From Aplectana chamaeleonis (lineage: Eukaryota; Nematoda; Chromadorea; Rhabditida; Cosmocercidae): a stretch of 64,000 nucleotides of DNA. Below the pieces are notes generated by a model. That model was not told the origin of the DNA, ran no database searches, and saw only the letters and a list, made by a program, of their open reading frames with translations. Where the stretch lies: positions 62,001-126,000 of the forward strand of contig JAPDOI010001317.1 of NCBI GenBank assembly GCA_029168955.1, read 5' to 3'. The position numbers and the translations under genes are program-made. The first letter of the stretch is position 1; the number at the start of each line of letters is the position of its first letter. Positions 9,929 to 55,300 of this stretch are shown piece by piece.

Positions 9929-10072
9929 TATCGTCCATCACTGGATGAGGGATCGCCGCGAAGCTGCTTGGCGGGAAAAATTGGGCGATCAATAGCCACT
10001 CTCTCTTCGTTTTCCCGCCCGCAATTTTTTCCGCCAGCGTCGCGGCGATGTCTCATCCAGTGATGGACGATA
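9929..10072. mobile_element. palindromic MITE, copy 1 (TATCGTCCATCACTGG ends)
   Basis: Starts TATCGTCCATCACTGGATGA and ends with its inverse (CATCCAGTGATGGACGATA). The arms are long and GC-rich, containing GATCGCCGCGAAGCTGCTTG. The whole element can fold into one hairpin. TA at each end suggests a Tc1/mariner-type target. Copy 2 is 60 bp away. Confidence 0.75.
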
Positions 10073-10132
10073 CTGTAAAGGTTCGTTTTGAGTGTTCAAA
10101 GAATGAAGACCTAACTGGGGCTATATTTCGAA

Positions 10133-10279
10133 TATCGTCAGTCACTGGATGAGGGATCGCCGCGACGCTGCTTGGCGGGAAAAATTGCGCGATCAATAGC
10201 CACTCTCCCTTCGTTTTCCCGCTCGCAATTTTCCCGCCAAGCAGCGTCGCGGCGATCCCTCATCCAGTGATGGACGATA
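10133..10279. mobile_element. palindromic MITE, copy 2
   Basis: Same family as 9929-10072, with near-perfect arms (GATCGCCGCGACGCTGCTTG and its inverse). Related partial arms (TTTTCCCGCCAAGCAGCGTC) occur at about 10917-11020, 44057-44200 and 47270-47395. Confidence 0.75.
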
Positions 10280-11149
10280 CATCCGTTTCGCCTTAGGTCG
10301 GTTGGTATCGAACCAACAATGGCTATCCGGAGAAGAGAGAAAAATACAATAGGTGTTTTGCTGTCCTTGTACCAGATCGCAGTCGAGCCACCCTCATGGC
10401 ATTGATCGAGAAACATATGGGAGACAGTTCAACAATTTATTCCGATAGTTGGAAATCCTATGATGCCATCTCGTCTTCCTCCAACTGTTGCTCTCAGTGA
10501 ATAAGGTGGGTCGTGAACATTTCATTGACCTCCTGAGTGGAGCAGACACTTACGAAATGGAATCTCCAAAAAAAAGCTTTAAAACCCGTTTAACGTTCGT
10601 TGTGTCACAGCACGATGAGTTTTCCCTCATCATAAAAGTAAATTCGTTTTCCGCAGAAGATCTCCGGCCAAATACTTGTTCACGACTCTGATTGTCCACA
10701 TTGTAAACTAATACTACGCGTCGTAGTATATCCTTTTTGCCTATTTCAGTTGTTGATTTCACAACCCAATGTCACAACCTTTTTTTAAATAAATTTTGGG
10801 CATGACCCATTGACACATCGAAGTGTTCAACATTTACGCAGGATTTACGCCCACCCGGAGTTCCAACCTCTTGAAAAATTGGAGTTTTTCACAACTAAGT
10901 TCACGTCTCTCAAATAGGAAGCCGCGCTCAGCAATCGGGCGCAGAATCATTCGATCGATAGTAATCTTCCTTACGTTTTCCCGCGCGCAAATTTTCCCGC
11001 CAAGCAGCGTCGCGACTTCCTACTCAAATCACACGAGCCATTCGCACGATTTCTCCGTACCCAGGAATCCAACTTCTCGAAAAAATGGAGAATGTTTACA
11101 TCAGTCTTAGAGATTCACGTACCCCCACAGTATAAGTGTCTACAGTTGT

Positions 11150-16391: not shown

Positions 16392-16646
16392 TACAGGCCA
16401 TAAAACGGCCAATGTCTCACCGTCGACTGCGTACCACGCGCTGCGCGACCGCACGTGCGTCGGAAGCAGACGAGTTTTGGCCGCCGCGCGACGAGTTTCG
16501 GCCGTCGCGCGGCGGCTAGAACTCGTCGCGCGGCGGGGAAAACTCGGCGCGCGGCGGGCAAAACCCGTCTGCTTCCGACGCGCGTGCGGTCGCGCAGCGC
16601 GTGGCTCGCAGTCGACGGTGAGACATTGGCCGTTTTATGGCCTGTA
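16392..16646. mobile_element. GC-rich palindromic MITE (CAGGCCATAAAACGGCC ends)
   Basis: TA plus CAGGCCATAAAACGGCCAAT at the left is matched by its inverse plus TA at the right. The arms run about 95 bp. The centre contains CGCGCGGCGG-type tracts. The TIR resembles that of the 2106 family (CAGGC[T/C]AT[A/G]AAACGGC), so both may use one transposase source. Confidence 0.75.
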
Positions 16647-19191: not shown

Positions 19192-20127
19192 ATGTGTGAT
19201 CGACTGCTCAGGTACGATTCGCTGTCAATCTTTGTCGGAGGTGTTTGGTGCAGCTCGCGCACGAAAGGCAGGGGAAGGAAAATTTCTGACAAAAGCGACT
19301 TGGGCTCGGTTGACGACAGTGAATTTGACATGCCGTCGACTTCAAAGAAGCGTGCCAAGACTCTGTCGGAGTCGTTTAAAAAAGGAAACGGAAGTGAGTT
19401 GGATGAAAATGTTACGTCGACAACGGTCACCCAGGCCAAAGCAATCTCTGAGGGTCAAATAGGCTCTGTCGAGGGACCAAAAAGGGGAGAGCCGTTTGCC
19501 GAAATGAATGGTAGTGCGGAGGCGATCGCTGTCTCGAAGGACGCGAAGAACGCTCCTGATGAGGGTACCAGTGACGCGCGAAATGCTGGGGGCGAATTGG
19601 GCTCGGTTGACGACAGTGATTTCGGCACGCCGTGGGCTCCAAAGAAGCGTGCCAAGACTCTGTCGGAGACGTTAAAAAAAGCAAACGGAAGTGAGTCGGA
19701 TGAAAATGTTACGTCGACAACGGTCACCCAAGCAAAAGCAGTCCGTGAGGGTCAAATGGGCTTAGTCGAGGGACCAAAAAGGGAAGAGCCGTTTGCCGAA
19801 ATGAATGGTAGTGCGGAGGCGATCGTTGTCCCGAAGGACGCTCCCGATGAAAGTACCAAAGCTGGAGCTATGACAACCAACGAGCGGCCGGTTTTCCTAA
19901 ATTGGTCCGATATGCCCGCTTATAATAATTCAATGGCAAGTAAAAAAGTTCACATTTCAGATTGTTACTTTTTCAAAACTTCTGGTCATATTGGAAAAAT
20001 ATCATGGACGTGCATGAGAGGGGAAAATGGCGCCAGCACACAAGAAAAGCGAACACCACATCGGAGCGAGAAACACGTTGAAAAAGAAGAGAAAGAATTG
20101 AAAAATATCATGTCAAATAGGTTCTGA
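19192..20127 (+). CDS. hypothetical hydrophilic protein (probable exon) with 99-residue duplication
   Basis: A 311-codon open frame whose first ATG may not be the true start; a splice acceptor could lie just upstream (GTGCAG near 19250). I do not recognise the family. Residues about 37-118 (LGSVDDSEFDMPSTSKKRAK ... EPFAEMNGSAEAI) are repeated from about 136 (LGSVDDSDFGTPWAPKKRAK ... EPFAEMNGSAEAI). The DNA offset is exactly 297 bp. The modules differ at scattered positions but keep the frame and the acidic/KKRAK/Ser-rich pattern. That suggests a disordered protein, and KKRAK could be a nuclear signal. The C-terminus is Lys/Glu-rich (EKEEKELKN). An ATTAAA lies about 100 bp downstream, inside a MITE boundary. 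No signal peptide or membrane segment. The coding status is an inference. Confidence 0.55.
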   Translation: MCDRLLRYDSLSIFVGGVWCSSRTKGRGRKISDKSDLGSVDDSEFDMPSTSKKRAKTLSESFKKGNGSELDENVTSTTVTQAKAISEGQIGSVEGPKRGEPFAEMNGSAEAIAVSKDAKNAPDEGTSDARNAGGELGSVDDSDFGTPWAPKKRAKTLSETLKKANGSESDENVTSTTVTQAKAVREGQMGLVEGPKREEPFAEMNGSAEAIVVPKDAPDESTKAGAMTTNERPVFLNWSDMPAYNNSMASKKVHISDCYFFKTSGHIGKISWTCMRGENGASTQEKRTPHRSEKHVEKEEKELKNIMSNRF

Positions 20128-22958: not shown

Positions 22959-22979
22959 CTTATTCCAAATGCAATTCAT

Positions 22980-23115
22980 TTCGAAAATCCGACTTTTCGA
23001 CTATAGTCGGATATCACACTTTTTCGAATATTCGACTTTTCGACTGTAGTCAGATATCGCACTTTTTCGAATATTCGACTTTCCGAATAAAAAGTCTACT
23101 TTTTTATCCGACTAT
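22980..23115. repeat. AT-rich minisatellite (ACTATAGTCGGATAT type)
   Basis: About three units of TTTTTCGAATATTCGACTTT with TCGACTATAGTCGGATATC. Related to 25445-25690 and, through the TCGAATATTCGA core, to 2807-3135 and 8650-8946. Confidence 0.75.
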
Positions 23116-25444: not shown

Positions 25445-25690
25445 GTTGTAATATCCGACTTTATGACTATAGTCGGATTTTGAACTATTCGAATATCCGA
25501 CGCTTCGACTGTAGTCGAATATAACCCTTTCAAATAGTCGACTTTTCGACTATAGTCGGATATCGCACTTTTTCGAATATTCGACTTTTCGACTATAGTC
25601 GGATGTCTCACTATATCGAATATCCGACTTGTCGAATAAAAAGTCGACTTTTTCATCCGACTGAAACAGTCGGATACTCGTCCGATTATT
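25445..25690. repeat. AT-rich minisatellite (second array)
   Basis: Imperfect units with TTTTCGACTATAGTCGGATA and CTTTTTCGAATATTCGACT; same family as 22980-23115. The reverse-strand ORF over it only reflects the repeat. A short decayed end of the 2106 MITE family (GAATTCCGTCGTTTCATAGC) follows at about 25722. Confidence 0.75.
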
Positions 25691-25749: not shown

Positions 25750-27221
25750 ATAATCCGGGTTGGAAATTTTCCAAACGCCTCAGAGATTTACAGGAGAATT
25801 AAAAACGTGGGCTGTTTTGAAGCCAAGCACTGAAGTGAAGAAGGATATCCGTATAGCACTTTTCAGGGTGTTCGGAGAATTTTTTCCTGATCCAACTCAG
25901 AATATTATGGGGCTTTTTTTGGTGCTGATAACGAATCTGAGGCCCATCGTCGATTTTTCAGAAATTCTGGCTAATTCGGCTTCCCAATGGGAGAAATTTG
26001 GCTGGCCAAGCGCGACTTCTGACGAATTCCTGAATGCTACCACGAAATAGCCCCAAAACTTCTTCATAGGGTTATTCCGGCTGCTTAACACAAATCTGTG
26101 GTCCGTTCTCTGAGAAAATCGGTACCGCTGGTTTCGCGATAGCCCCGAGATTCTCGCTGGTATCGCGATGGGGTATCGGCAGTTGATTGGTACGCTGTTT
26201 TTTGACGATTTCTCACAAAAAAAAATTGCTCCATCCGAGTTACAGACTTTGTTTTCATTTTTTGTTGTGTCGAAAGCCATGCTTTTTTGAACGGTCGACT
26301 TGTCGAATTACTCGAAAACCACACTTTCTTACGTTCTCGGTCTTCGCTGGAGAATATAAAGACGCTTCGGAAATAACGTCGAGTGTTTTTTTTTCTAAAA
26401 TGGCACATGGCTTACTATCAAATAAGGCATATAGACGTGGCGATGGACACATCACTTATAGCTGCTTCGAAATTGAAAGCGCGTTTCCCGTGTTGATTGT
26501 GTTAAAGCTAACTTTTCCAAAATATCTTGTTCCAGAGTAAGCAATGTGTCACCTAAAAAGGGCTTTTGATGCTGATTTCAGATATCTCTTTATATCAAAG
26601 AATGGTCTATTTTGAACAGAGTGTTGAAAAGAAGCATAAAAACTCCTTTTTGTGCTCAAAACGCAAATGATATCAGCGGTATTGCACTTCATCCTGGCAT
26701 CGCACCCGTAAATGGCGAACACTTCTCTAAATGCTGGGTCGTCTTGGAACAAAACGATTCAAAAACTGGAACTTTGACAGAGCAGCAAAAACCATCACTG
26801 TGAAAATCTGTAGACATATGCACAGCGTTAACGGTTCTCGTAAGATTCTGTCTAATTTTTAACGCAGCTGTCATGAAGACTACATAAACTGAATTATTGC
26901 CCGATTAAAATGGGTGAGGACGTCTGAATTCAAGTATCAAAGCTAGGTGTTCGCAATTTGCGTTTGATAAGCATGAAATCGCTCCAGCCGCGAAGCGGCT
27001 GGTGAGGTTTGGTTTTGCCTGGCACTTGTGATCACTTAGAATTTGGTAAAGTAGTTAATAAAACCTGTAAAACAAATTTTCTAGAGATTTCCTTCTGGAT
27101 ATAAATGAGAGAGTCTAGAAGACACCCGCTGACAAAATTTGAGCCAAATCGATTGAAAATTAACAAAGTTAGATCGGCGGAAGCTTAGCTAAAATTCGCG
27201 TTTTTTCTTGTAACGCGTCCC
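25750..27221. other. no recognisable gene
   Basis: ORFs up to 127 codons show no recognisable domain. A small hairpin AGCCGCGAAGCGGCT is at about 26986-27000. Confidence 0.4.
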
Positions 27222-27262
27222 TCGTGTCCTGTTCCTCGTTCCTCGTTCCTCGTTCCTGCCAC
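27222..27262. repeat. 7-bp microsatellite (CGTTCCT)
   Basis: About four repeats of TTCCTCG lie about 220 bp left of the large satellite. Confidence 0.7.
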
Positions 27263-27890
27263 TAGCCACTGCCAGTGGTCGCAGGCGATCAGTTGGGCAG
27301 GTAGGTAAGTTGGTATGTGGACAGATATGATTACCTACTGTTTAACATTAACTACTTCACCTTTTACTACTTATCATATCAAGTGATATTATCAGTTGGT
27401 AGACCAAATCGCTTAAACACGTCGTAGGCTGTACTTTTCTGTAGGGAAGGGACAGGGGGAGAGACTAACAAGTTTGTTACTTTCTGATGACGTCATCAAA
27501 GTGCATGGGGAATGTGATGACGTCATCAGGGTGTCATGTAAAGTACATAGGGCATCTGATGACGTCATCAGGGTGTCATGTAAAGTACATAGGGCATCTG
27601 ATGACGTCATCAGGGTGTCATGTAAAGTACATAGGGCATCTGATGACGTCATCAGGGTGTCATGTAAAGTACATAGGGCATCTGATGACGTCATCAGGGT
27701 GTCATGTAAAGTACATAGGGCATCTGATGACGTCATCAGGTGTCATGTAAAGTACACAGGGCATCTGATGACGCCATCAGGGTGTCATGTAAAGTACACA
27801 GGGCATCTGATGACGTCATTAGGGTGTCATGTAAAATACATAGGGCATCTGATGACGTCATCAGGGTGTCATGTAAAGTACATAGGGCAT

Positions 27891-29230
27891 CTGTGACGTC
27901 ATTAGGGTGTCATGTAAAGTACATAGGGCATCTGATGACGTCATCAGGGTGTCATGTAAAGTACATAGGGATCTGATGACGTCATCAGGGTGTCATGTGA
28001 AGTACATAGGGCATCTGATGACGTCATCAGGGTGTCATGTAAAATACATAGAGCATCTGATGACGTCATCAGGGTGTCATGTAAAGTACATAGGGCATCT
28101 GATGACGTCATCAGGGTGTCATGTAAAGTACATAGGGCATCTGATGACGTCATCAGGGTGTCATGTAAAGTACACAGGGCATCTGATGACGTCATCAGGG
28201 TGTCATGTAAAATACATAGGGCGTCTGATGACGTCATCAGGGTGTCATGTAAAATACATAGGGCATCTGATGACGTCATCAGGGTGTCATGTAAAGTACA
28301 TAGGGCATCTGATGACGTCATCAGGGTGTCATGTAAAGTACATAGGGCATCTGATGACGTCATCAGGGTGTCATGTAAAGTACATAGGGATCTGATGACG
28401 TCATCAGGGTGTCATGTGAAGTACATAGGGCATCTGATGACGTCATCAGGGTGTCATGTAAAGTACATAGAGCATCTGATGACGTCATTAGGGTGTCATG
28501 TAAAATACATAGGGCATCTGATGACGTCATCAGGGTGTCATGTAAAGTACATAGGGCATCTGATGACGTCATCAGGGTGTCATGTAAAATACATAGGGCA
28601 TCTGATGACGTCATCAGGGTGTCATGTAAAGTACATAGGGCATCTGATGACGTCATCAGGGTGTCATGTAAAGTACATAGGGCATCTGATGACGTCATCA
28701 GGGTGTCATGTAAAGTACATAGGGCATCTGATGACGTCATCAGGGTGTCATGTAAAGTACACAGGGCATCTGATGACGTCATCAGGGTGTCATGTAAAGT
28801 ACATAGGGCATCTGATGACGTCATTAGGGTGTCATGTAAAATACATAGGGCATCTGATGACGTCATCAGGGTGTCATGTAAAGTACATAGGGCATCTGTG
28901 ACGTCATTAGGGTGTCATGTAAAGTACATAGGGCATCTGATGACGTCATCAGGGTGTCATGTAAAGTACATAGGGATCTGATGACGTCATCAGGGTGTCA
29001 TGTGAAGTACATAGGGCATCTGATGACGTCATCAGGGTGTCATGTAAAGTACATAGGGATCTGATGACGTCATCAGGGTGTCATGTAAAGTACATAGGGC
29101 ATCTGATGACGTCATCAGGGTGTCATGTAAAGTACATAGGGCATCTGATGACGTCATCAGGGTGTCATGTAAAGTACACAGGGCATCTGATGACGTCATC
29201 AGGGTGTCATGTAAAATACATAGGGCGTCT
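27891..29230. repeat. ~1.0-kb segmental duplication inside the satellite
   Basis: Marker variants recur about 1005 bp apart: CTGTGACGTCATTAG at 27891 and 28897, GGGCGTCTGATG at about 28220 and 29225. The offset equals 24 units less one or two 1-bp deletions. Confidence 0.7.
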
Positions 29231-30354
29231 GATGACGTCATCAGGGTGTCATGTAAAATACATAGGGCATCTGATGACGTCATCAGGGTGTCATGTAAAG
29301 TACATAGGGCATCTGATGACGTCATCAGGGTGTCATGTAAAGTACATAGGGCATCTGATGACGTCATCAGGGTGTCATGTAAAGTACATAGGGCATCTGA
29401 TGACGTCATCAGGGTGTCATGTGAAGTACATAGGGCATCTGATGACGTCATCAGGGTGTCATGTAAAATACATAGAGCATCTGATGGCGTCATCAGGGTG
29501 TCATGTAAAGTACATAGGGCATCTGATGACGTCATCAGGGTGTCATGTAAAATACTTAGGGCATCTGATGACGTCATCAGGGTGTCATGTGAAGTACATA
29601 GGGCATCTGATGACGTCATCAGGGTGTCATGTAAAGTACATAGGGCATCTGATGACGTCATCAGGGTGTCATGTAAAATACATAGGGCATCTGATGACGT
29701 CATCAGGGTGTCATGTAAAATACATAGGGCATCTGATGACGTCATCAGGGTGTCATGTAAAATACATAGGGCATCTGATGACGTCATCAGGGTGTCATGT
29801 AAAATACATAGGGCATCTGATGACGTCATCAGGGTGTCATGTAAAGTACGTAGGGCATCTGATGACGTCATCAGGGTGTCATGTAAAATACATAGGGCAT
29901 CTGATGACGTCATCAGGGTGTCATTTAAAGTACATAGGGCATCTGATGACGTCATCAGGGTGTCATGTAAAATACATAGGGCATCTGATGACGTCATCAG
30001 GGTGTCATGTAAAATACATAGGGCATCTGATGACGTCATCAGGGTGTCATGTAAAATACATAGGGCATCCGATGACGTCATCAGGGTGTCATGTAAAATA
30101 CATAGGGCGTCTGATGACGTCATCAGGGTGTCATGTAAAATACATAGGGCATCTGATGACGTCATCAGGGTGTCATGTAAAGTACATAGGGCATCTGATG
30201 ACGTCATCAGGGTGTCATGTAAAATACATAGGGCATCTGATGACGTGATCAGGGTGTCATGTAAAGTACGTAGGGCATCTGATGACGTCATCAGGGTGTC
30301 ATGTAAAGTACATAGGCATCTGATGACGTCATCAGGGTGTCATGTAAAGTACAT

Positions 30355-30840
30355 AGGGCATCTGTGACGTCATTAGGGTGTCATGTAAAGTACATAGGGC
30401 ATCTGATGACGTCATCAGGGTGTCATGTAGAGTACATAGGGCATCTGATGACGTCATCAGGGTGTCATGTAAAGTACATAGGGCATCTGTGACGTCATTA
30501 GGGTGTCATGTAAAGTACATAGGGCATCTGATGACGTCATCAGGGTGTCATGTAAAGTACATAGGGCATCTGTGACGTCATTAGGTGTCATGTAAAGTAC
30601 ATAGGGCATCTGATGACGTCATCAGGGTGTCATGTAAAGTACATAGGGCATCTGTGACGTCATTAGGTGTCATGTAAAGTACATAGGGCATCTGATGACG
30701 TCATCAGGGTGTCATGTAAAGTACATAGGGCATCTGTGACGTCATTAGGGTGTCATGTAAAGTACATAGGGCATCTGATGACGTCATCAGGGTGTCATGT
30801 AAAGTACATAGGGCATCTGTGACGTCATTAGGGTGTCATG
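30355..30840. repeat. 82/83-bp dimeric higher-order repeat
   Basis: Full units alternate with a deletion unit (CTGTGACGTCATTAG). The deletion units start at 30363, 30488, 30571, 30653, 30735 and 30818, so most spacings are 82 or 83 bp (41+42, or 41+41). The 1-bp deletion and the CATTAG change always travel together. Confidence 0.85.
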
Positions 30841-31445
30841 TAAAGTACATAGGGCATCTGATGACGTCATCAGGGTGTCATGTAAAGTACATAGGGCATC
30901 TGATGACGTCATTAGGGTGTCATGTAAAGTACATAGGGCATCTGATGACGTCATCAGGGTGTCATGTAAAGTACATAGGGCATCTGATGACGTCATCAGG
31001 GTGTCATGTAAAGTACATAGGGCATCTGATGACGTCATCAGGGTGTCATGTAAAGTACATAGGGCATCTGATGACGTCATCAGGGTGTCATGTAAAATAC
31101 ATAGGGCATCTGATGACGTCATCAGGGTGTCATGTAAAGTACATAGGGCATCTGATGACGTCATCAGGGTGTCATGTAAAATACATAGGGCATCTGATGA
31201 CGTCATCAGGGTGTCATGTAAAGTACATAGGGCATCTGATGACGTCATCAGGGTGTCATGTAAAATACATAGGGCATCTGATGACGTCATCAGGGTGTCA
31301 TGTAAACTACCTTGGGCATCTGATGACGTCATCAGGTGTCATGTAAAGTACATTGGGCATCTGATGACGTCATCAGGGTGTCATGTAAAATACATAGGGC
31401 ATCTGATGACGTCATCAGGGTGTCATGTAAAGTACATAGGGCATC

Positions 31446-33710
31446 TGATGTCGTCATCAGGGTGTCATGTAAAATACATAGGGCATCTGATGACGTCATC
31501 AGGGTGTCATGTAAAGTACATAGGGCATCTGATGACGTCATCAGGGTGTCATGTAAAGTACATGGGGCATCTGATGACACCATCAGGGTGTCATGTAAGG
31601 TACATAGGGCATCTGATGACGTCATCAGGGTGTCATGTAAGGTACATATGGCATCTGATGACGTCAGCAGGGTGTCATGTAAAGTACATAGGGCATCTGA
31701 TGACGTCATCAGGGTGTCATGTAAAATACATAGGGCATCTGATGACGTCATCAGGGTGTCATGTGAAGTACATAGGGCATCTGATGACGTCATCAGGGTG
31801 TCATGTAAAATACATAGGGCATCTGATGACGTCAGCAGGGTGTCATGTAAAGTACATAGGGCATCTGATGACGTCATCAGGGTGTCATGTAAAATACATA
31901 GGGCATCTGATGACGTCATCAGGGTGTCATGTAAAGTACATAGGGCATTTGATGACGTAATCAGGGTGTCATGTAAGGTACATAGGGCATCTGATGACGT
32001 CATCAGGGTGTCATGTAAAATACATAGGGCATCTGATGACGTCATCAGGGTGGCATGTAAAGGACATAAGGCATCTGATGTCGTCATCAGGGTGTCATGT
32101 AAAATACATAGGGCATCTGATGACGTCATCAGGGTGTCATGTAAAGTACATAGGGCATCTGATGACGTCATCAGGGTGTCATGTAAAGTACATGGGGCAT
32201 CTGATGAGACCATGAGGGAGTCATGTAAGGTACATAGGGCATCTGATGACGTCATCAGGGTGTCATGTAAGGTACATAGGGCATCTGGTGACGTCATCAG
32301 GGTGTCATGTAAAGTACATAGGGCATCTGATGACGTCATCAGGGTGTCATGTAAAATACATAGGGCATCTGATGACGTCATCAGGGTGTCATGTGAAGTA
32401 CATAGGGCATCTGATGACGTCATCAGGGTGTCATGTAAAATACATAGGGCATCTGATGACGTCAGCAGGGTGTCATGTAAAGTACATAGGGCATCTGATG
32501 ACGTCATCAGGGTGTCATGTAAAATACATAGGGCATCTGATGACGTCATCAGGGTGTCATGTAAAGTACATAGGGCATTTGATGACGTAATCAGGGTGTC
32601 ATGTAAGGTACATAGGGCATCTGATGACGTCATCAGGGTGTCATGTAAAATACATAGGGCATCTGATGACGTCATCAGGGTGTCATGTAAAATACATAGT
32701 GCATCTGATGACGTCATCAGGATGTCATGTAAAATACATAGGGCATCTGATGACGTCATCAGGGTGTCATGTAAAATACATAGGGCATCTGATGACGTCA
32801 TCAGGGTGTCATGTAAAGTACATAGGGCATCTGATGACGTCATCAGGGTGTCATGTAAAATACATAGGGCATCTGATGACGTCATCAGGGTGTCATTTAA
32901 AGTACATAGGGCATCTGATGACGTCATCAGGGTGTCATGTAAAATACATAGGGCATCTGATGACGTCATCAGGGTGTCATGTAAAATACATAGGGCATCT
33001 GATGACGTCATCAGGGTGTCATGTAAAATACATAGGGCATCTGATGACGTCATCAGGGTGTCATGTAAAATACATAGGGCGTCTGATGACGTCATCAGGG
33101 TGTCATGTAAAATACATAGGGCATCCGATGACGTCATCAGGGTGTCATGTAAAGTACATAGGGCATCTGATGACGTCATCAGGGTGTCATGTAAAATACA
33201 TAGGGCATCTGATGACGTCATCAGGGTGTCATGTAAAGTACATAGGGCATCTGATGTCGTCATCAGGGTGTCATGTAAAATACATAGGGCATCTGATGAC
33301 GTCATCAGGGTGTCATGTAAAGTACATAGGGCATCTGATGACGTCATCAGGGTGTCATGTAAAGTACATGGGGCATCTGATGACACCATCAGGGTGTCAT
33401 GTAAGGTACATAGGGCATCTGATGACGTCATCAGGGTGTCATGTAAGGTACATATGGCATCTGATGACGTCAGCAGGGTGTCATGTAAGGTACATAGGGC
33501 ATCTGATGACGTCATCAGGGTGTCATGTAAAGTACATAGGGCATCTGATGACGTTATCAGGGTGTCATGTAAAGTACATAGGGCATCTGATGACGTCATC
33601 AGGGTGTCATGTGAAGTACATAGGGCATCTGATGACGTCATCAGGGTGTCATGTAAAGTACATAGGGCATTTGATGACGTAATCAGGGTGTCATGTAAGG
33701 TACATAGGGC
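31446..33710. repeat. 630-bp (15-mer) higher-order repeat blocks
   Basis: Variant markers repeat at exact multiples of 42. TGATGTCGTC is at 31446, 32076 (+630) and 33252 (+1176). The GTCAGCAG unit is at 31824 and 32454 (+630). TGATGACGTAATC is at 31950, 32580 (+630) and 33672 (+1092). Confidence 0.85.
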
Positions 33711-34020
33711 ATCTGATGACGTCATCAGGGTGTCATGTAAAGTACATAGGGCATCTGATGACGTCATCAGGGTGTCATGTAGAGTCATAGGGCATCTGAT
33801 GACGTCATCAGGGTGTCGCGTAAAGTACATAGGGCATCTGATGACGTCATCAGGGTGTCATGTAAAGTACATAGGGCATCTGATGACGTCATCAGGGTGT
33901 CATGTAAAGTACATAGGGCATCTGATGACGTCATCAGGGTGTCACGTAAGGTACATAGGGCATCTGATGACGTCATCAGGGTGTCATGTAAGGCACATAG
34001 GGCATCTGATGACGTCATCA

Positions 34021-35196
34021 GGGTGCTGTGTGAAGTACGTAGGGCATCTGATGACGTCATCAAGGTGTCATGTAAAGTACGTAGGGCATCTGATGACGTC
34101 ATCAGGGTGTCATGTAAGGTACGTAGGGCATCTGATGACGTCATCAGGGTGTCATGTAAAGTACATAGGACATCTGGTGACGTCATCAGGGTGTCATGTA
34201 AAGTACATAGGGCATCTGGTGACGTCATCAGGGTGTCATGTAAAGTACATAGGGCATCTGATGACGTCATCAGGGTGTCATGTAAGGTACATAGGGCATC
34301 TGATGACGTCATCAGGGTGTTATGTGAAGTACGTAGGGCATCTGATGACGTCATCAAGGTGTCATGTAAAGTACGTAGGGCATCTGATGAGGTCATCAGG
34401 GTGTCATGTAAGGTACGCAGGGCATCTGATGACGTCATCAGGGTGTCATGTAAGGTACATAGGGCAACTGATGACGTCATCAGGGTGTCATGTAAAGTAC
34501 ATAGGGCATCTGGTGACGTCATCAGGGTGTCACGTAAGGTACATAGGGCATCTGATGACGTCATCAGGGTGTCATGTAAGGTACATAGGGCATCTGATGA
34601 CGTCATCAGGGTGTTATGTGAAGTACGTAGGGCATCTGATGACGTCATCAAGGTGTCATGTAAAGTACGTAGGGCATCTGATGACGTCATCAGGGTGTCA
34701 TGTAAGGTACGTAGGGCATCTGATGACGTCATCAGGGTGTCATGTAAAGTACATAGGACATCTGGTGACGTCATCAGGGTGTCATGTAAAGTACATAGGG
34801 CATCTGGTGACGTCATCAGGGTGTCATGCAAAGTACATAGGGCATCTGATGACGTCATCAGGGTGTCATGTAAGGTACATAGGGCATCTGATGACGTCAT
34901 CAGGGTGTTATGTGAAGTACGTAGGGCATCTGATGACGTCATCAAGGTGTCATGTAAAGTACGTAGGGCATCTGATGAGGTCATCAGGGTGTCATGTAAG
35001 GTACGCAGGGCATCTGATGACGTCATCAGGGTGTCATGTAAGGTACATAGGGCAACTGATGACGTCATCAGGGTGTCATGTAAAGTACATAGGGCATCTG
35101 GTGACGTCATCAGGGTGTCATGTAAAGTACATAGGGCATCTGATGACGTCATCAGGGTGTCATGTAAAGTACATGGGGCATCTGATGACATCATCA
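34021..35196. repeat. 294/588-bp higher-order repeat (7-mer within 14-mer)
   Basis: The marker unit with TGTGAAGTACGTAG recurs at 34021, 34315, 34609 and 34903, exactly 294 bp (7 units) apart. Copies 1 and 3 share AGGACATCTGGTGACG. Copies 2 and 4 share GATGAGGTCATC, GTACGCAGGG and GCAACTGATG. The true period is therefore 588 bp, duplicated once. Confidence 0.9.
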
Positions 35197-35830
35197 GGGT
35201 GTCATGTAAGGTACATAGGGCATATGATGACGTCATCAGGGTGTCATGTAAGGTACATAGGGCATCTGATGACGTCATCAGGGTGTCATGTAAGGTACAT
35301 AGGGCATCTGATGACGTCATCAGGGTGTCATGTAAAGTACATAGGGCATCTGATGACGTCATCAGGGTGTCATGTAAAGTACATGAGGCATCTGATGACG
35401 TCATCAGGGTGTCATGTGAAGTAAATAGGGCATCTGATGACGTCATCAGGGTGTCATTTAAAGTACATAGCGCATCTGATGACGTCATCAGGGTGTCATG
35501 TAAGGTATATAGGGCATCTGATGACGTCATCAGGGTGTCATGTAAAGTACGTAGGGCATCTGATGACGTCATCAGGACGTCGTGCCAAGGTCGTGCCAGG
35601 TGCATAAAGCATCTGGTAACGTCATCAGGACGTCGTGCCAAGGTGGTGTCAAGTGCATAGGGCATCTTCTGACGTCATCAGGACGTCGTGGAAAGTTTGT
35701 AGCGCTTCATTTGTAGCGTGCGCAACAAGTTTGTTGCTCACTGATTATTATAGCAATCCATGCTATTCGAAAAAATATTGAAGATTTTTCAGGGATATTA
35801 CTTCGTAATATCACTAAAAAGTGAACAAAT

Positions 35831-36426
35831 CCATCAAAAATGGGTCTTCAAGTCAAAAGAGGTTTGGTTGGCGTCAGAAACGTTCCAACAAAAAGGGAAC
35901 AATAGGTTAGTAGAATGGAGAGTCTACAAAAAGTGAACAATATTTTCTGAGACTGATTTTCCTGGCCGATACTTCTTAACAGCAAAACAAACCGTTGCGG
36001 TGTTCTACACGAAAGCACTCTGTGGTTCCAAAAATGGTCTAGATTACGCGAGAACCGTTTAAATGTATGTGCCTGTAAACCTAATACTTACCATCAGAAT
36101 AGAAGATGATGCCAAAAACACAGACGGACGGTTAGCTCCAGTTGCTACGAGAAGCGAAACCAAAGTACAGCATCTAATGAGAGTATTTTCTTATATTCTC
36201 GTCAAAATTGAAGTCCATTTTTGGAAACCGTTGAACTCTTCCTCGTGAAATACCACAACGGTTTGTTTTTGCTGTTAAGAAGTATCGGCCAGGAAAATCA
36301 GTCTCAGAAAATATTGTTCACTTTTTGTAGACTCTCCTCACTCTACTTACCTATTGTTCCCTTTTTGTTGGAACGTTTCTGACGCTAACCAAACCTTTTT
36401 TGCTTGCAAGACCCCTTTTTGATAGA
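35831..36426. mobile_element. fold-back element with ~185-bp arms beside the satellite
   Basis: The left arm (35831-36020) includes CGTTCCAACAAAAAGGGAAC and CTGGCCGATACTTCTTAACA. Their reverse complements follow in reverse order at 36240-36426. The 220-bp centre holds a short, unremarkable ORF. The element starts about 140 bp from the satellite's right edge. Confidence 0.85.
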
Positions 36427-37221
36427 ATTTTATTCGGATTACGTATGGGTTTGAAAAGCTAAAATACCAAATCGTTCGAGTACTATTCCTACGCAAAGGA
36501 TTCCGAAGAAAACGTAAGATGGGTGGCAGGCAAATGCTGGAAAGCTGTATCATCAGCTGTATCGGTGTGTTGCTTAACAAACAACTATTCGATATCCACT
36601 ATGGGGAGGGCAATTATATTTGGCTCATCTCGGAGGCTTCGCAGCGAGGTCGCGTAGGTGTCTTGAAAAACACCTACGCGGTGTCAACGCTCAGCCGACG
36701 CGGCCATCGGCTCTTCAACGAGCTGCGATTTGCTATTTGCGTGCAGGCAGGGCGATTGGTATTGAAGGCACCGCAATGACCCCATGTAGGTGCCTATAGG
36801 GCACCTACACGGCCGCGTAGCGGTGCCGTCACCACAGGTTTTCTCAGAGTTTACAGATTTTTTTTTACAACGGCATTTAACAGCGGATATACGATAAATT
36901 GGTCAGTCTCACACCAGTTAAAAGACATTATCCGTATTGTAACGTATGTCTAGCGACAAACAGACCCCAGATTCGCGTTAAGCGCCCTAAATAGCCCCAG
37001 TCGAAAGTTTTAGGCCAAGTTCAAAAACGTTTTGATTGCCCCAAGAATTTCTCGATACCTTCACCTTTCCACTGAGCGAACTAAATGCTTTCTTTGAAAT
37101 TCCCGGGGGCGTTTAGAGAATTTCGGGCACGAATCATGTATGTACTGTCACAAACCTACAACAACGAAAGCATGGCTTTCCGGATTGTAGGGATGAGGGC
37201 AAAGCAGTACCTAGTAAGTGC
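36427..37221. other. hairpins, otherwise no gene
   Basis: Two strong small hairpins share the arm GTAGGTG: CGCGTAGGTG/CACCTACGCG at 36651-36680, and TGTAGGTGCC/GGCACCTACA at 36785-36809. They may be the ends of one GC-rich element. No gene is recognised. Confidence 0.6.
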
Positions 37222-37414: not shown

Positions 37415-38345
37415 CCAGGCCGTCCAATAATTGCTGTCCGAAAATTTTCAAGATTCTATAATTTTGCTTAGAAGTGTTGTAATACCAGGCAAGTGTAAAA
37501 ACCTTCTAGAAGGTTCTCCAAAGTTCTACGCTAGGGTATATAAGGCGCAGTCGCCGCGTCTAGCTACCAGTACAAGCTAAAATGGACCAACGTCGAATTC
37601 GTACGTTCGTGTACTACGAGTGGCTGCTGGGCAACGACACGGGCACTGCGGTCGCCAACATCTGCAGAGCGTGCAAGGAGGATGCAGTGTCCTAACGCAC
37701 AGTCAGCCGCTGGTTCAATCGCTTCGAGAGCGGCGACACGAGCCTCGAGGACAGGGAGCACAGCGGGAGGCCTTCTACGGTGGATGATGACGAAGTCCGT
37801 CGCTGTATCAAGGAGAAGCCGGAAGCCACGACCCGTGAACTGGCGACGACGCTCGGCTGCAGCAAGTCCACCATCCACAATCGACTCAACTTACTCGGCT
37901 ACCACAAAGTTCTGGCCCGTTGGATCCCCAACCGTCTGACGGACGCCAACAAGCAGAGCCGCGTGGCCGTCTGCCAGTCTCTCCTCCTTCGTCCGCATCG
38001 CAAGGAGTTTCTCGAGACCCTGATAACTGGGGATGAGAGCTGGGTCCCCTACGACAACGTCACCCGCCGTGCCGTCTTGATCCCACGCGGAGAAGAGCCG
38101 CCGACGACGCCGAAAGCCGACCTGCACCCGCTGAAGATCATGCTCTGCTGCTGGTGGGACACCAAGGGCATGCTGTACTTCGAGCTGCTCCCGCAAGGCA
38201 GGACGGTCACCGCCTCTATCTACACCGATCAGCTCGAGAAACTAGCCGCCACCATCCGAGAAAAGCGTCCCCGACGGGCCTCGGTCCACCTGCCGCACGA
38301 CAACGCGCGCCCCCACGTGGCGAAGGAGACCCTGGACAACCTGGT
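37415..38345 (+). pseudogene. mariner-family transposase, internal stop and 3' truncated
   Basis: A TA at 37413-37414 precedes the likely left TIR start (CCAGGCCGTCCAATAATTGC). The ATG is at 37582. The protein shows both N-terminal helix-turn-helix regions (TVSRWFNRFESGDTSLEDRE; TTRELATTLGCSKSTIHNRL), the linker WIPNRLTDANKQSR, then TGDESWVPYDN (first catalytic Asp), WWDTKGM and HDNARPH (second Asp). A TAA at 37693 breaks the frame after EDAVS. The frame leaves the family at LDNL (about 38342), before the SPDLAPSD region, so the third catalytic Asp is gone. High GC in coding third positions contrasts with the AT-rich surroundings. Dead mariner copy; the subfamily is not assigned. Confidence 0.92.
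37537..37545 (+). promoter_or_regulatory. TATA box of the mariner copy
   Basis: TATATAAGG lies 37 bp upstream of the transposase ATG and is followed by GCGCAGTCG. Similar TATA/GCGCAGTC pairs are on the minus strand near 53970 and, weaker, near 40550. Confidence 0.55.
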
Positions 38346-39867
38346 ATTTACGTCATAAAAATGATATTCGTTAATCGATACACCATATCTGTCATCGTTC
38401 CAAGCCCTCAGCGTTTCCTTCTGTTGAGGCGAAAGCGCTGCCGGCTCCTGACGTCTTACCGAGGTTTGGCAGAAACCCTCTACTGGACCAATGTCACTTA
38501 AGGCAACTTGCTGTTGTGAAAGATCGACTAAAAGGTAAAACTGGCACTGAGCTCTGAAAGGTCCAACCCTGGAAACTTTCCGCAGTTCACAAATTTTGCA
38601 CTCATGTAAGTCGTCACACTTTACCCTACCTCCGTGGAAAACTTGGTGGCGGTGTAGCATTTGCTCGGCGTTTGAGGGGTCTCGGCTGACCTAAATTTGA
38701 TCCAGTAATTATCCAAGAAAACAAATGATATCATAGCTATTGAATTCCTGCAAAATGCTGTAGCGCCCACATAGTTTGCGTTTTCGCTGCCACCAGTTTG
38801 TTCGCGTTCTTCTTCGAACGCACGCTATTTCGCAGCTCGACGAGATCGTACATTGTGTCATCCATCATCGCATCTCTGCCCGCTGAAAAAGCGAAATCAT
38901 TGGATTGAAGTCGGGAAATGGAAAATACAGTCAGAACGAACTGCACTGATACTTTGCGTTTCTTATAGTCCGTTGGCGCAAACTCGGTTCGCACGTGCTA
39001 TAACACACGTGGACCGAGTTTGCACCAACGGAGAGTAGGGTACGCTAAGTATCAAGACGTTGCGCCTCGACTGTACATATGCTTCATGCATCTAATTAGG
39101 AAGCATTACTGAGCTTCTAAACACGAATTCGATCGATAGTGATGAGACCGAGTTCATACTTCCCGCTATGAGCGGCCGCGACAGCGCCTATCAAGCATAT
39201 CGATTTTTGGTCGATATTGATGGTAAACACTGCGTCGCGTCAGAAAGATTGGAGTCCTAACAGGTACTGGAACTTCACTGGAACCCGGATATTCTCCTCA
39301 CTCACATTGGAAAAATAAAAACTAACCTTCCTCTTACAGGAAAATAAGACCGAAATTTGATATTTGACTCACGGGCGGCCTTCCTTTTTTTGTCACTCCC
39401 GTCAGCTTTCATCTTAATCTCTTGCTTGATTTTGTTGTCCATTGCTGGGTTTGGCGCCTTTCCCAACGCGCGGAGAACCTAATTTGAGATGACTTTTCGG
39501 AAGCATGCCGATGGAATGCTAGTTACTGACTCCCTGGCTCCCCATAGTTCAACCCTTTCATTAAAACAAATTATGTATGTATAGTCAATCTCTGGATTGC
39601 GGGAATGCGCGCCCCAGCATGTTGGGCGCGCTTCGAGCATCTGGGATGACCCCGTCATGGATATAAACGATCAATATTGTTCAGTGCTGATGTTAACCAA
39701 CACTTCCCCAATTCTCCTTTCTCAGCTATCATTTTTCGTTCCTTCCCTCACACTCACTTTTTTCTTCCTATTTTTTCTTGGTGTATTGACTCTATAGTTA
39801 CCCAGTTTTCCCCTTTCTTGCCCATTTCTTCTTTTCATTGGTCGTTTTTATCATTTTTTTGTTTCAG
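38346..39867. other. mostly unassigned; one palindrome
   Basis: An imperfect palindrome at 38948-39050 has arms GTCCGTTGGCGCAAACTCGG and CCGAGTTTGCACCAACGG. The rest shows only short ORFs and pyrimidine-rich sequence (39700-39866) that could be the 3' part of an intron. Confidence 0.5.
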
Positions 39868-40295: not shown

Positions 40296-40365
40296 CTGCC
40301 CTGAAGCCCCCTGTGACTGCCCTGAAGCCCCCTGTCACTGCCTTGAAGCCCCCATCACTGCCCCG
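40268..40365. repeat. 21-bp tandem repeat (TGACTGCCCTGAAGCCCCC)
   Basis: Four to five copies of a 21-bp unit with minor changes, directly followed by the CRE triplet. Confidence 0.8.
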
Positions 40366-40371
40366 GAGCCA

Positions 40372-40423
40372 TGACGTCACGGCTCCGGAGCAGTGACGTC
40401 ACGACACCGGAGCAGTGACGTCA
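40372..40423. promoter_or_regulatory. three CRE octamers at 22-bp spacing
   Basis: TGACGTCA occurs at 40372, 40394 and 40416, exactly 22 bp apart (about two helical turns). The first sits in a near-perfect palindrome (CCGGAGCC ... GGCTCCGG). It may be a bZIP-responsive cluster or a chance GC-rich repeat. Confidence 0.55.
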
Positions 40424-40429
40424 CCCTCC

Positions 40430-51482: not shown

Positions 51483-51630
51483 AAGACTATGAAAAAGCGA
51501 AATCACCGTGGTTCCAACGCCTGCTGGAGCGATGCGCAGGTTAGAGACAGCACGAGAGCTGATGGAGGCAGCAGCGTCGCGCACGCTATTGGCGGGAATT
51601 TCGATTTTTTACAGTGGATATACAGTTTAC
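51483..51630 (+). mobile_element. TA-flanked MITE of the 2106 family
   Basis: GACTATGAAAAAGCGAAATC at the left, GATGCGCAGGTTAGAGACAG inside, and GAATTTCGATTTTTTACAG near the right end, followed by TA. Confidence 0.65.
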
Positions 51631-51634
51631 GGCA

Positions 51635-52107
51635 ATGTTAAAAGGACATGGTGCGGTTGCGGTCACACACTAAAACTACGGTGGAAAACGCCAAATTTCA
51701 TTATCGGTCAACACTACAGCTGATTTTCTTGGTGAGTTACGGTTTTTCTTTTTTTCTTGTTTGCTTCCACATTATTTTTGTTTCTGACTCTTATAATATT
51801 ACGAATAGGGGCTTTTCTCAGTGTTCGAGAGGAATTCGCCTTTCTTTTTCGATATAGAAACAGAATTTTGAAAAGAGAAGCCCGAACAAACTGCTAATTT
51901 CCTTCACGCACTAAGAACAGCCCCTATTCGCAATATTTAAACAGTCAGAAACAAAAATAAAACCGAAACAAACAAGAAACAAAGAAGAACCGTAACTTAC
52001 CCGGAAAATCAGCTGTGCTGTCGATCGATAATGAAATTAGGCGTCTTCCACTGTATTTTAGGGTGCGACCGCAACCGCAGCATGTCCTTTTAACATTGCC
52101 GTCAACT
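51635..52107. mobile_element. long fold-back element downstream of RRP36
   Basis: Arms of about 190 bp: TTAAAAGGACATGGTGCGGT, CCAAATTTCATTATCG and AATAGGGGCTTTTCT on the left return inverted on the right as AGCCCCTATTCGCAAT, CGATAATGAAATTAGG and GCAGCATGTCCTTTTAA. The ~80-bp centre has no gene. The right edge is 45 bp from the RRP36 stop codon, so RRP36 transcripts could run into it. Confidence 0.85.
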
Positions 52108-52151
52108 GGACTCTGTTTCTCTCGAGTGGGACATCCTAGAGCGCAGAGCCC

Positions 52152-52303: not shown

Positions 52304-55300
52304 CTAAAACAAGAGAAACTCAATACCAAGCAATTCTGCGTATTTACGGAAGACCTATCGGATTCGATGGGAACGCCTTCAGACTTGTCCAAATATTATG
52401 CTACTTTTGCTATTTTTTTTCGAATTCGCCCCCAGCAAAGCTTTCTGCCCACGGAAATTAAAAATGGCACTCACCTTTCGTCTTGAATATCGGCTTCTCT
52501 CCCTTCATCATTCGATCAATGTTTTCTTGACGCAATTCTTTGTAAGCCTCCTGCTTCAATCTTCGTTCCGCTTTCGTTCTTTCACGGTTATCCATTCGAC
52601 GAATAGCCTATAATTTACATGCGTACCTCACGTTTCGAATTGGACTAAATGGTTACAAAGCTTTCAGATTTCAAGAGAACACATCTTAAAATTACTTCAT
52701 GAATCTTCTCTGCCATACTGGTATCTCCTCGTTTTTCACATTCAGCTGCTTCCTTCGAAAGCTCCTGAATAATTACAATTATCACTTTAGGTTGCCCAAA
52801 TTTTGGAAACACCTAGACAGAAATGTAAAATTTAACTCTCCAATTCTGTTTCAAAAATCATTATAAGCGCCGTTGGAGTCAGTCTCAAACGAGTCAGCCA
52901 TCGGAGCCCAAAAAAGCAACGCTCCCTCTGCGTCTCTAACAAGCGCGCAACGTACGCAAATCAAGTATGCGACGCAGCATCTCTCTTGCCGTGACCCACA
53001 AAACAGAGCTCTTCGATTTTCACGTACTCGTTTCTTTTTCTACTTCCTCTTTCTTTCTTCTCTACACAAACTGCAGTCGAACCAAAAGGTCAATTAAAGA
53101 CAGCACACTTTGTGATCGTTTGTATCAAGTCATATCCTTCCAGCCGCTAGCTGTTACCCATATACAGAAGCACACTACCTGTCACTCAAGAAGAGTATCC
53201 GCATCTAGAGCGAATATCTGAACGAAAATAATGAAAAAAACATGAAGTGTGATTCTTTGAATCATGATAATTTTGCATTATTTTCGCTCAAACGTGTTAC
53301 TCGATCTTAATGCAGATACACTTATTTACGTGGCAGGTAGTGGCTTTCAGGATACAGGAAACAAATAGCTGGAAGGATACGGCTTGATACAAACGAGCAG
53401 TTTCATGAACTGTGCGGTCGTTAATTGACCTTAGGTTTGACCGCAGTTCTCAGGCATTGTGGGGTTTGTAACGCGCAGCAATCGCGGGTCATAATCTGAA
53501 CCGCTCCCGTTAGAAACGAAAAAATGAGCGAAGCGGGTGCCCCATATCTGCCGTTTGCCCCGCTATTTGCCCTAGGTTTCAATCATGTTCGGTTCCGCCC
53601 GCGATATCCGCCGATTCACTGCCGTTTGCAGCTTTCGACCATGCTAGATTAGATTTACAACGGCAAAGGAGGTCGTCGCCCTATTACAGAAGCACGTGGC
53701 GCTAGGGGCGGCGTCCCATCATTTGATAGGAGCGGGTCTCCCCCAAGAAGGACACGGTCCATGTCGCGACCCGCGTGAGGGAGTCACCCCCACCGCGGTC
53801 CGCGACAGGGACGTCATCCACGCTACGGTCGACCGCGAGAGAGCTTCCCTCGCTGAGGACCGTTGGGGAGACCCCTCAGCGGTCAAAAATCGTCCAGAGA
53901 GTGACTCGTAGCCACTTTCCAGGAGCGGCCCGAAAGGCCGACTGCGCTCTCTCTGGGATGAGGCCCCTTATATACGTGCTCTGCTGCTGATATGGGCCTG
54001 GTCAATTGTGGAGTCATCTATAACGTGATTTGGCAGATAAAACGAGTGCATACCCTGTCAAATCGTGCACGAACGCAACACCGAGCCTCTTTGCAGCAGT
54101 GACGTCATCGCCAGCCAAACGGCGGAATCCGAGGTTTGGCAGGCGCTGAACGCAGACCGGAATGGTCATGCGGGATCTCTGCCGTTTGCCCCGCACAGGT
54201 CGAAATGGGACGTTTCAGTGCGCGTTAGAAACGCCAGAATGTCTGAGTTTGTGTAGAGTGGAAAGAAGAAGAAAGCAGAGAAACAAATGAGTACTTGAAA
54301 AATCGGAGGATTCTGTTTTTTTTTGGATTCAGGTAAGGCAAATGTTGCATAGCGCACGTGATTTTCGCACGTTGCACGCTCGTCAGACACACAGGGGGAG
54401 CATTGCTTCTTTAGAGTCTCGGATGGATAACTCGTTTGGGACAGAGTATACAATCAAACGCAAACGCTCGGGAAAAAAATAGATCATGCCCGCAGCACTC
54501 AGAGCTGCTCATCGAAAATCTTCCGGAAGTGCGTTTTGAGATCGTAATAGTGGCGTTCAATTTGTTTCTCGTCCAGGTAATGAGCGAGAAGCGGAAACAA
54601 GGCATGATCAGTAGGCGAGGCGAGAGGTCAGGCAAATACGGCGGATGGGCGACTGAAGTTCAGCCGAGATTCAGAATTTTCTTATGAATGGTTGAAGACC
54701 CACCCATAAGGGCGACTCGTGGAGCAGGTGAATCTTACGCTGCTTTTCCTCTACCTTCTTCGCGACGACATCAAGTAGGGTGCAGTAAGAAGCACCTGTA
54801 CATAGTTACTCCTCCTGGCAGCACCTCACAGTAGACCACTCATTCCTTCGCGGTACCCGAAAACATGTCAACAACACTTTCTCTCCTTTGTCGCCGGGTT
54901 GCGGTGTTGGAATGCCAGTGTATTTCGTTTCAAGCTACTGGCGCTTGAGGATTTTTGAAAGAAAGCACCCGCTCCTCGTCCATTGTGACCACTTGCCGAA
55001 GCCAATGGTCGTTGTTGCGGAGTGAAAGATGAACCAAGTAGGTGTCCGTGCGCAGCTGCATCTGATGCTTCGTCAAATCGTGTGGCAGCCACATACCATA
55101 TTTCCAAGAAAAGCAGCGCCTGTTAGATTTGCGTTCAGCAAGGGTCAAGACGCTTTGTCAGCCACCGTGTCGTCTGTCTCGGATCTTCTTCGGTGGCGGC
55201 ACGAAAACCTCGAAGCCTAAAGAAGCAGCATGGCCGGTAAGCGACTCACCGGTGATGCTGTGCTCGCCCTTGTGGGAACAATGAACCATATGGAGACCAT

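What the first reader, a model, noticed from the sequence alone, without database searches (positions are those of the whole stretch)
27485..35695. Large satellite built from CRE/ATF palindromes
Seen: about 195 head-to-tail 42-bp units, most with an intact CTGATGACGTCATCAG. Known: TGACGTCA is the symmetric binding site of CREB/ATF bZIP dimers. Inferred: close to 200 high-affinity sites in 8 kb could form a transcription-factor sink, a super-responsive enhancer, or a protein-coated chromatin domain. The octamer stays mostly intact while other positions vary, which either reflects selection or recent homogenisation.
Basis: partly seen in the sequence, partly recalled or inferred. Interest (0 to 1): 0.9.

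Follow-up and report, generated by a model that had tools for sequence, protein, structure and literature searches.

The report
CRE-studded repeat inside a mobile element
The 8-kb block of about 194 copies of a 42-base repeat, most holding the CREB/ATF docking site TGACGTCA, is the core of a jumping element that looks like a rolling-circle transposon and has spread this site widely through a nematode genome.

Summary
The window holds about 194 head-to-tail 42-bp units, with 179 TGACGTCA and 146 exact CTGATGACGTCATCAG. It is not a free-standing satellite. It is the central repeat of a dispersed, non-autonomous, Helitron-like element (window 26979-36427) with a terminal hairpin, 12-bp subterminal inverted repeats, a microsatellite, a 145-bp repeat, a 603-bp palindrome, no target-site duplication seen, and A|T junctions. 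An exact 31-mer of its terminus occurs 804 times in the 1.04-Gb assembly. TGACGTCA occurs 349,376 times there, against 20,142 for its reversed control; 135,132 sites carry the exact 14-mer context. Nearest precedents: oyster HINE central repeats, and Caenorhabditis Helitrons that spread heat-shock elements. Evidence for constraint is mixed. Octamer singletons are not depleted, but octamer variants are under-represented among amplified variants, and the octamer is more intact genome-wide than one tested spacer window (92.9% vs 80.5%). The adjacent CATCTGAT is equally intact in the sample. bZIP binding is untested. Rated a new variant of a known kind; the CRE load is the surprising part.

The parts
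26979..36427 (-). Whole non-autonomous Helitron-like element; its own 5'->3' reads on the minus strand: A|T(T)CTATCAAAAAGG ... GGCTGGAGCGA|T
   Evidence: Similarity between sampled copies stops at the same bases. In the 9 copies with both ends read, the flanks share at most 1 bp: 6 from the script; for L030, L031 and L032 the script's end match was off (it printed 0, 2 and 0), and I read the junctions by eye.
26981..27002 (-). Terminal hairpin next to the element's 3' end (10-bp stem, loop TTC)
   Evidence: Folds as DNA at -12.9 kcal/mol, z -4.9. Both arms present in 20 of 21 left ends listed, several with 1-3 changes; half lost in L030.
27003..27014 (+). Subterminal inverted repeat, 3' side (consensus AGAGGTTTGGTT; window copy TGAGGTTTGGTT)
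   Evidence: Exact or with 1-2 changes in the 21 left ends, which were chosen by flank similarity; inverse copy at 36387-36398.
27216..27257 (+). Microsatellite (CGTTCCT)n
   Evidence: TRF, period 7; length varies between copies.
27331..27482 (+). One copy of a ~145-bp repeat, tandem in other copies of the element
   Evidence: BLAST of sampled copies: over 30 tandem copies in L037, L040 and L043.
27485..35576 (+). Central array of 42-bp units with the CRE palindrome
   Evidence: Block duplications inside it (units 101-108 = 116-123; 93-99 = 136-142).
35556..35690 (+). Edge units of 53 bp (GGACGTCGTGCC...), resembling the related unit subfamilies L050 and L051
   Evidence: TRF; comparison by eye with L050/L051.
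35794..35812 (.). Internal hairpin GATATTACTTCGTAATATC
   Evidence: Found with up to 3 errors in 12 of 21 sequences searched (window and 11 loci); in the other 9 it was not matched or the right end is outside the stretch. Folds with z -3.8.
35827..36429 (.). 603-bp near-palindrome forming the element's 5' arm
   Evidence: Self-BLAST inverted match, 74.5% identity over 620 columns; -206.9 kcal/mol, z -26.6 against 20 shuffles.
36387..36398 (+). Subterminal inverted repeat, 5' side (AACCAAACCTTT here)
   Evidence: AACCAAACCTCT exactly in 7 of the 10 outer right ends listed.

Best explanation
The array is the central tandem repeat of a non-autonomous, rolling-circle (Helitron-superfamily-like, HINE-like) transposon in a strongylid-type nematode. 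Shown: hundreds of copies of the terminus; the same modules in sampled copies; no target-site duplication in the copies read; array length from 5 to at least 119 units in sampled copies and 194 in the window. Inferred: a Rep/helicase supplied in trans mobilises the element, and unit number changes by slippage, unequal exchange or aberrant rolling-circle copying, which gives the block duplications. Inferred, weaker: the CRE octamer is not a random passenger. It is kept in the units that get amplified because a bZIP (CREB/ATF) dimer binds it and drives transcription or opens chromatin on the element, as HSF-1 does on heat-shock elements in Caenorhabditis Helitrons. Side effect, inferred from the 17-fold excess: most perfect CREs of this genome now lie in repeats, so they are either silenced or titrate and rewire CREB/ATF. 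My estimates: TE central repeat 0.9; rolling-circle kind 0.8; octamer maintained by selection on the element 0.35.
For: Left flank is a high-copy repeat (3258 first-look candidates, 40 scored, 145 matches). The terminal 31-mer occurs 388 + 416 times, control 0. In 16 of 20 fetched 10-kb copies the 42-bp array lies in the same order and orientation. As a converse check, the 3 array clusters listed on contig C1 each have the terminus within about 5 kb. Hairpin, subterminal inverted repeat, microsatellite, central repeats and missing duplication match HINE descriptions (PMC4067079 and PMC7492417, passages). The genome has 42 matches to Helitron_like_N PF14214. TGACGTCA: 349,376 against 20,142 for the control word. 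Octamer intact in 68,135 of 73,352 contexts against 57,400 of 71,343 for spacer window 19-26. Amplified to singleton variants: octamer 30:34, other positions 205:92, Fisher p 0.0013. Precedent: Caenorhabditis Helitrons with dense heat-shock elements (96 in one copy) bound by HSF-1 (PMC6927752, passages).
Against: The 3' end reads GCGA, not the canonical CTRR, and junctions fit A|T rather than the TT of Helentrons. No autonomous partner with the same ends was found: the one 3' side checked (L049, C65) lacks them. No empty site was recovered in the single try. The sampled copies were the best flank matches, so other subfamilies are under-sampled. Singletons hit the octamer as often as the spacer (p 0.72), and variant-by-array events give p 0.09, so arrays are not visibly protected once inserted. 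The whole 16-mer palindrome shows no clear effect (p 0.08). The neighbouring CATCTGAT is as intact as the octamer. The spacer control window includes a variable subfamily position (25), and arrays share ancestry, so the p values overstate independence. No occupancy or expression data.
Confidence: 0.8

Rival explanations
1. Neutral passenger: the CRE palindrome only happens to sit in the founder unit. The element is a HINE-like transposon whose internal repeat grows by slippage, and homogenisation alone keeps the octamer.
For: Octamer singletons equal spacer singletons (6.25 vs 5.96 per position, permutation p 0.72). Window 40-47 is as conserved as the octamer. Other arrays in the window (2802-3082, 8704-8940, 22979-23086, 25450-25635) are also built of palindromes without a CRE.
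Against: Amplified variants are depleted in the octamer; all variant cells are fewer there too (p 0.0135). Related subfamilies with diverged spacers still hold TGACGTCA: 0 of 8 octamer columns vary, 14 of 34 others do, but those loci were found by the octamer and so are biased.
Confidence: 0.5
2. Structural role: the 16-bp palindrome is kept because it forms hairpins in the single-stranded intermediate and seeds unit amplification; protein binding is irrelevant.
For: Each unit folds as ssDNA into two hairpins (-4.9 and -5.1 kcal/mol for the two strands, z -1.9 and -3.2). Palindromes recur in other repeats of this window. Passages of PMC12628747 say stem-loop motifs in Helitrons take part in such amplification.
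Against: The second hairpin (ATGTA..TACAT) is not conserved: positions 25, 29, 30, 34 and 35 are among the most variable. Of 29 cells changed on both sides of a palindrome pair, 10 restore complementarity, while 434 are changed on one side only.
Confidence: 0.2
3. Genuine regulatory or sink satellite selected by the host: the arrays act as a CREB/ATF decoy or chromatin domain.
For: About 17-fold excess of TGACGTCA genome-wide over the control word.
Against: Dispersed element copies with decaying units: L051 shows several broken units beside three homogenised intact ones. No data on binding.
Confidence: 0.1
4. Assembly artefact or contamination.
For: None found.
Against: Many loci on large contigs with different flanks; varied units, not clonal copies.
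Confidence: 0.03

Closest known systems
HINE central repeats of Crassostrea gigas (PMC7492417, passages seen)
   Same: Non-autonomous element with subterminal inverted repeats, 3' palindrome, microsatellite and a central satellite-like array, dispersed, no target-site duplication.
   Different: The main oyster clusters have 140-180 bp units in short arrays; here 42 bp and up to 194 units. Target there is oligo-T; here the junctions fit A|T. The term 'transcription factor' does not occur in that paper's text.
HSE-bearing Helitrons of Caenorhabditis (Garrigues et al. 2019, PMC6927752, passages seen)
   Same: Nematode Helitrons carrying dense clusters of one transcription-factor site (96 heat-shock elements in one quoted copy; almost two-thirds of C. 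elegans HSEs lie in Helitrons).
   Different: Here the site is the CRE palindrome; 349,376 sites genome-wide against 18,766 HSEs quoted for C. elegans (different motif definitions); no occupancy or expression shown here. A word search of that paper found no crh-1, atf or bZIP.
DINE-1 / HINE of Drosophila and mites (PMC4067079, passages seen)
   Same: Subterminal inverted repeats, 3' stem-loop, tandem repeats in some copies, no coding capacity.
   Different: The subterminal repeat lies about 29 nt from the 5' end here (2-4 nt in mite HINEs); TT target there; no autonomous partner linked here.

Membership tests
Canonical Helitron | 5' TC end | tested here: met
   5' end T(T)CTATC in 8 of 9 copies, TTTATC in 1.
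Canonical Helitron | 3' CTRR end | tested here: not met
   Ends GCGA before host T.
Canonical Helitron | 16-20 nt palindrome near the 3' end | tested here: met
   10-bp stem, 3 nt from the end; the canonical distance is about 11 nt.
Canonical Helitron | Insertion between A and T, no target-site duplication | tested here: inconclusive
   Junctions of 9 copies fit A|T and share at most 1 bp (6 by script, 3 by eye); no empty site recovered.
Helentron/HINE | Subterminal inverted repeats of 11-15 bp | tested here: met
   AGAGGTTTGGTT / AACCAAACCTCT; the 5' one lies about 29 nt in, further than in mite HINEs.
Helentron/HINE | TT or oligo-T insertion site | tested here: not met
   A before the 5' T(T)C and T after GCGA.
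Helentron/HINE | Central tandem repeats and microsatellite | tested here: met
   42-bp, 145-bp and (CGTTCCT)n.
Helentron/HINE | Autonomous Rep/helicase partner with the same ends | tested here: inconclusive
   42 PF14214 matches in the genome; only one 3' side inspected, without these ends.
HSE-type TF-site Helitron (Caenorhabditis) | Dense TF motif inside the element | tested here: met
   179 TGACGTCA in the window copy; the motif is a CRE, not an HSE.
HSE-type TF-site Helitron (Caenorhabditis) | Factor occupancy and induction of nearby genes | not testable with these tools
   No ChIP or RNA data available.
Classical satellite DNA | Long free-standing arrays, not part of a mobile element | tested here: not met
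   The sampled arrays lie next to or between element ends; arrays outside elements elsewhere in the genome were not excluded.

The most novel reading that the evidence does not exclude
A Helitron-like lineage has taken on the CRE palindrome as a working part. Copies whose units keep TGACGTCA are the ones that amplify, because CREB/ATF binding helps them be transcribed or copied. As a result, over 90% of the perfect CREs in this nematode genome are now transposon-borne or in related repeats, rewiring or buffering cAMP/CREB signalling.
Probability: 0.25. Interest if true: 0.85.

Novelty: new variant of a known kind. Interest (0 to 1): 0.6.

Why it matters
Helitrons that carry one transcription-factor site in tandem are known for heat shock in Caenorhabditis. 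The same design with a different factor, in another nematode group and at about 18 times the quoted site number, would suggest that tandem factor sites are a recurring part of nematode rolling-circle elements rather than a Caenorhabditis oddity. About 330,000 perfect CREs above the control in one genome also make a natural test of whether a genome can hold that many sites for a central signalling factor without silencing them.

Tried and rejected
Array as coding sequence: all frames run open over long stretches because the unit is 14 codons, but a query built from three of its frames found no relatives among 8000 scored candidates. RNA gene: no Rfam match; no tRNA. Unit elsewhere: 0 exact matches of a 25-mer in GTDB contigs and 0 in IMG/VR. 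Published motif: 0 papers hold TGATGACGTCATCA, 0 hold TGACGTCA + transposable element + CREB + satellite; some searches gave one paper each, judged from the listing as not relevant. Empty site: one joined flank gave only its own two halves plus a 38-base partial hit. Coding remnants inside two longer copies: L033 no open frame over 103 codons, L039 a nested retroelement-like ORF. Species name: only placed near Nippostrongylus/Heligmosomoides by a mariner ORF.

An octamer-independent test of the related subfamilies (flank of L050) was planned and never answered. The bZIP gene search did not complete. The right-flank copy search did not complete.

Rows dropped before counts: 12 of 30 rows were opposite-strand readings of the palindrome and were dropped, leaving 18 arrays (window, L002 and 16 of the 20 ten-kb loci; 4 had no array). 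L001 was left out as an overlap of L032, L003-L008 as overlaps of L002; L009-L028 (3-kb cuts) were not used in the unit counts. In one search only the 11 arrays with at least 20 units were used and gaps were skipped; arrays of at least 14 units with gaps counted.
Full report
What is there. The window holds 192.8 copies of a 42-bp unit at 27498-35576 with 95% matches. A cyclic alignment counts 194 units with edges, 179 TGACGTCA and 146 exact CTGATGACGTCATCAG inside the stated coordinates, against 4 and 0 in the rest of the window. Fifty-nine unit types occur among 192 full units, the commonest 50 times. Blocks of 7-8 units are duplicated within the array, as expected from local unequal exchange or slippage.

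What it belongs to. The left flank (27240-27482) is a high-copy repeat: 145 matches from 40 scored of 3258 candidates, best 99% identical besides itself. I fetched 20 of the matched copies with 10 kb each, so the sample leans towards close relatives of the window copy. In 16 of 20 the 42-bp array lies in the same order and orientation; in the other 4 (L037, L038, L040, L043) only the 145-bp repeat is seen in the stretch. The ends are sharp. Read on the minus strand the element runs A|T(T)CTATCAAAAAGGGG ... subterminal AGAGGTTTGGTT ... 603-bp palindrome ... hairpin ... 53-bp edge units ... 42-bp array ... 145-bp repeat ... microsatellite ... AACCAAACCTCT ... hairpin CTCCAGCCGC-TTC-GCGGCTGGAG ... 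CGA|T. The two flanks share at most 1 bp in the 9 copies read: 6 from the script, while for L030, L031 and L032 the script's 3' end match was off (it printed 0, 2 and 0) and the junctions were read by eye. The exact 31-mer of the terminus occurs 388 + 416 times with 0 control matches. As a converse check, the three array clusters listed on contig C1 (the list shows only the first 100 places) have the terminus within about 5 kb. Array length in sampled copies runs from 5 to at least 119 units, and 194 in the window.

Kind of element. Subterminal inverted repeats, a 3' stem-loop, a microsatellite, central tandem repeats and no duplication are the features given for HINEs (PMC4067079 and PMC7492417, passages). 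Three details do not fit: the 3' end is GCGA rather than the CTRR of canonical Helitrons, junctions fit A|T rather than the TT of Helentrons, and the 5' subterminal repeat lies about 29 nt in. I therefore call it Helitron-like and do not file it under canonical Helitrons or Helentrons. The assembly holds 42 matches to Helitron_like_N, several in long open frames, so a trans source is plausible. A link by shared ends is not shown; the one 3' side I read (L049) lacks them. The 603-bp palindrome at the 5' arm is unusual and unexplained.

Genome-wide scale. TGACGTCA occurs at 349,376 sites; its reversed word, equal in composition, at 20,142. Of the first 56 listed sites on C1, up to 2.55 Mb, 13 lie in four clusters that I read (L001/L032, L050, L051, L052); the other 43 give about 17 per Mb, close to the control. 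So roughly 94% of perfect CREs are in excess of the control. In the 157,833 bases of sampled sequence outside the element that I scanned there were 11 (70 per Mb, 3 of them in one minisatellite), a higher background than the C1 figure. Exact TGATGACGTCATCA accounts for 135,132 sites (control 3). What holds the rest is only sampled: L050, L051 and L052 are related tandem arrays (42-bp spacing between octamers in L050 and L051) whose spacers differ (9-11 of 42 positions among the window, L050 and L051 units) while the octamer is kept in the homogenised units. Those loci were found by the octamer, so this is not evidence of constraint by itself.

Is the octamer constrained? For: genome-wide it is intact in 68,135 of 73,352 contexts (92.9%), against 57,400 of 71,343 (80.5%) for spacer window 19-26, the only spacer window tested genome-wide. 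In 17 of 18 arrays divergence per site is lower in the octamer than in positions 13-42 (exception L033). All variant cells are fewer there (permutation p 0.0135). Variants that have spread within an array (2 or more units) are rarer in the octamer: 30 amplified to 34 singletons, against 205 to 92 elsewhere (Fisher p 0.0013, 11 arrays, ends trimmed); without trimming 32:35 against 221:100, p 0.0017; with another filter 35:45 against 246:153, p 0.004. The ten eight-base windows with the lowest ratios all overlap the octamer. Against: singletons are as common in the octamer as in the spacer (p 0.72), counting variant-by-array events gives p 0.09, the full 16-mer shows p 0.08 and CATCTGAT is as intact, the spacer control includes the variable position 25, and related arrays are not independent. 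My reading: new mutations are not removed from existing arrays, but units with a broken octamer seem less often amplified. That fits selection or biased copying at the level of the element. It is suggestive, not proven.

How it most likely works. Inferred from architecture and literature: rolling-circle transposition disperses the element, and internal repeats expand by slippage, exchange or aberrant rolling-circle copying (PMC12628747, passages). TGACGTCA as the CREB/ATF site is textbook knowledge and was not tested here. The nearest functional precedent is the Helitrons of Caenorhabditis that spread heat-shock elements bound by HSF-1 (PMC6927752, passages; first seen cited in PMC9071541); a word search of that text found no crh-1, atf or bZIP. 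By analogy the CREs would drive element expression or open chromatin; a neutral passenger is at least as likely on present evidence.

Host. A mariner-like ORF at 37696-38355 is 88% identical to a Nippostrongylus brasiliensis protein and 91% over 45% of its length to a Heligmosomoides polygyrus protein.

Noticed in passing
window 40355-40424: A separate 22-bp minisatellite holding three TGACGTCA; a similar piece occurs at C1:99001-99060 (L053). Its spacer is unlike the 42-bp unit.
   Followed up: partly
window 2802-3082, 8704-8940, 22979-23086, 25450-25635: Four arrays of 42-43 bp units built of palindromes around TTCGAATATTCGAA or CGACTATAGTCG, similar to each other, without a CRE.
   Followed up: partly
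window 35827-36429: 603-bp near-palindrome whose inner end (TTCTATC in most copies, TCCATC here) resembles the element's 5' end; an inverted duplication or a fixed foldback insert.
   Followed up: partly
L050, L051, L052: Related CRE-bearing tandem subfamilies (42-bp spacing in L050 and L051) with diverged spacers; L051 shows several broken units beside three homogenised intact ones.
   Followed up: partly
window 37696-38355: Mariner-like transposase ORF (PF01359), 88% to Nippostrongylus brasiliensis.
   Followed up: yes
window 59438-60115: Reverse transcriptase fragment (PF00078); non-LTR type is recalled, not tested.
   Followed up: no
L039 1587-4207: Nested retroelement-like ORFs (540 and 386 aa) inside one copy of the element; type judged by eye, not tested.
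   Followed up: no
window 51623-52108, 9918-10290, 53069-53448, 16392-16646: MITE-like palindromic inverted repeats of about 250-490 bp, among many in the window's self-comparison.
   Followed up: no
window 19295-19841: A 297-bp tandem duplication (1.8 copies, 90% matches), inside an open frame of 314 codons.
   Followed up: no
L037, L040, L043: Copies of the element in which the 145-bp repeat has expanded to over 30 tandem copies and no 42-bp unit is seen in the stretch.
   Followed up: partly
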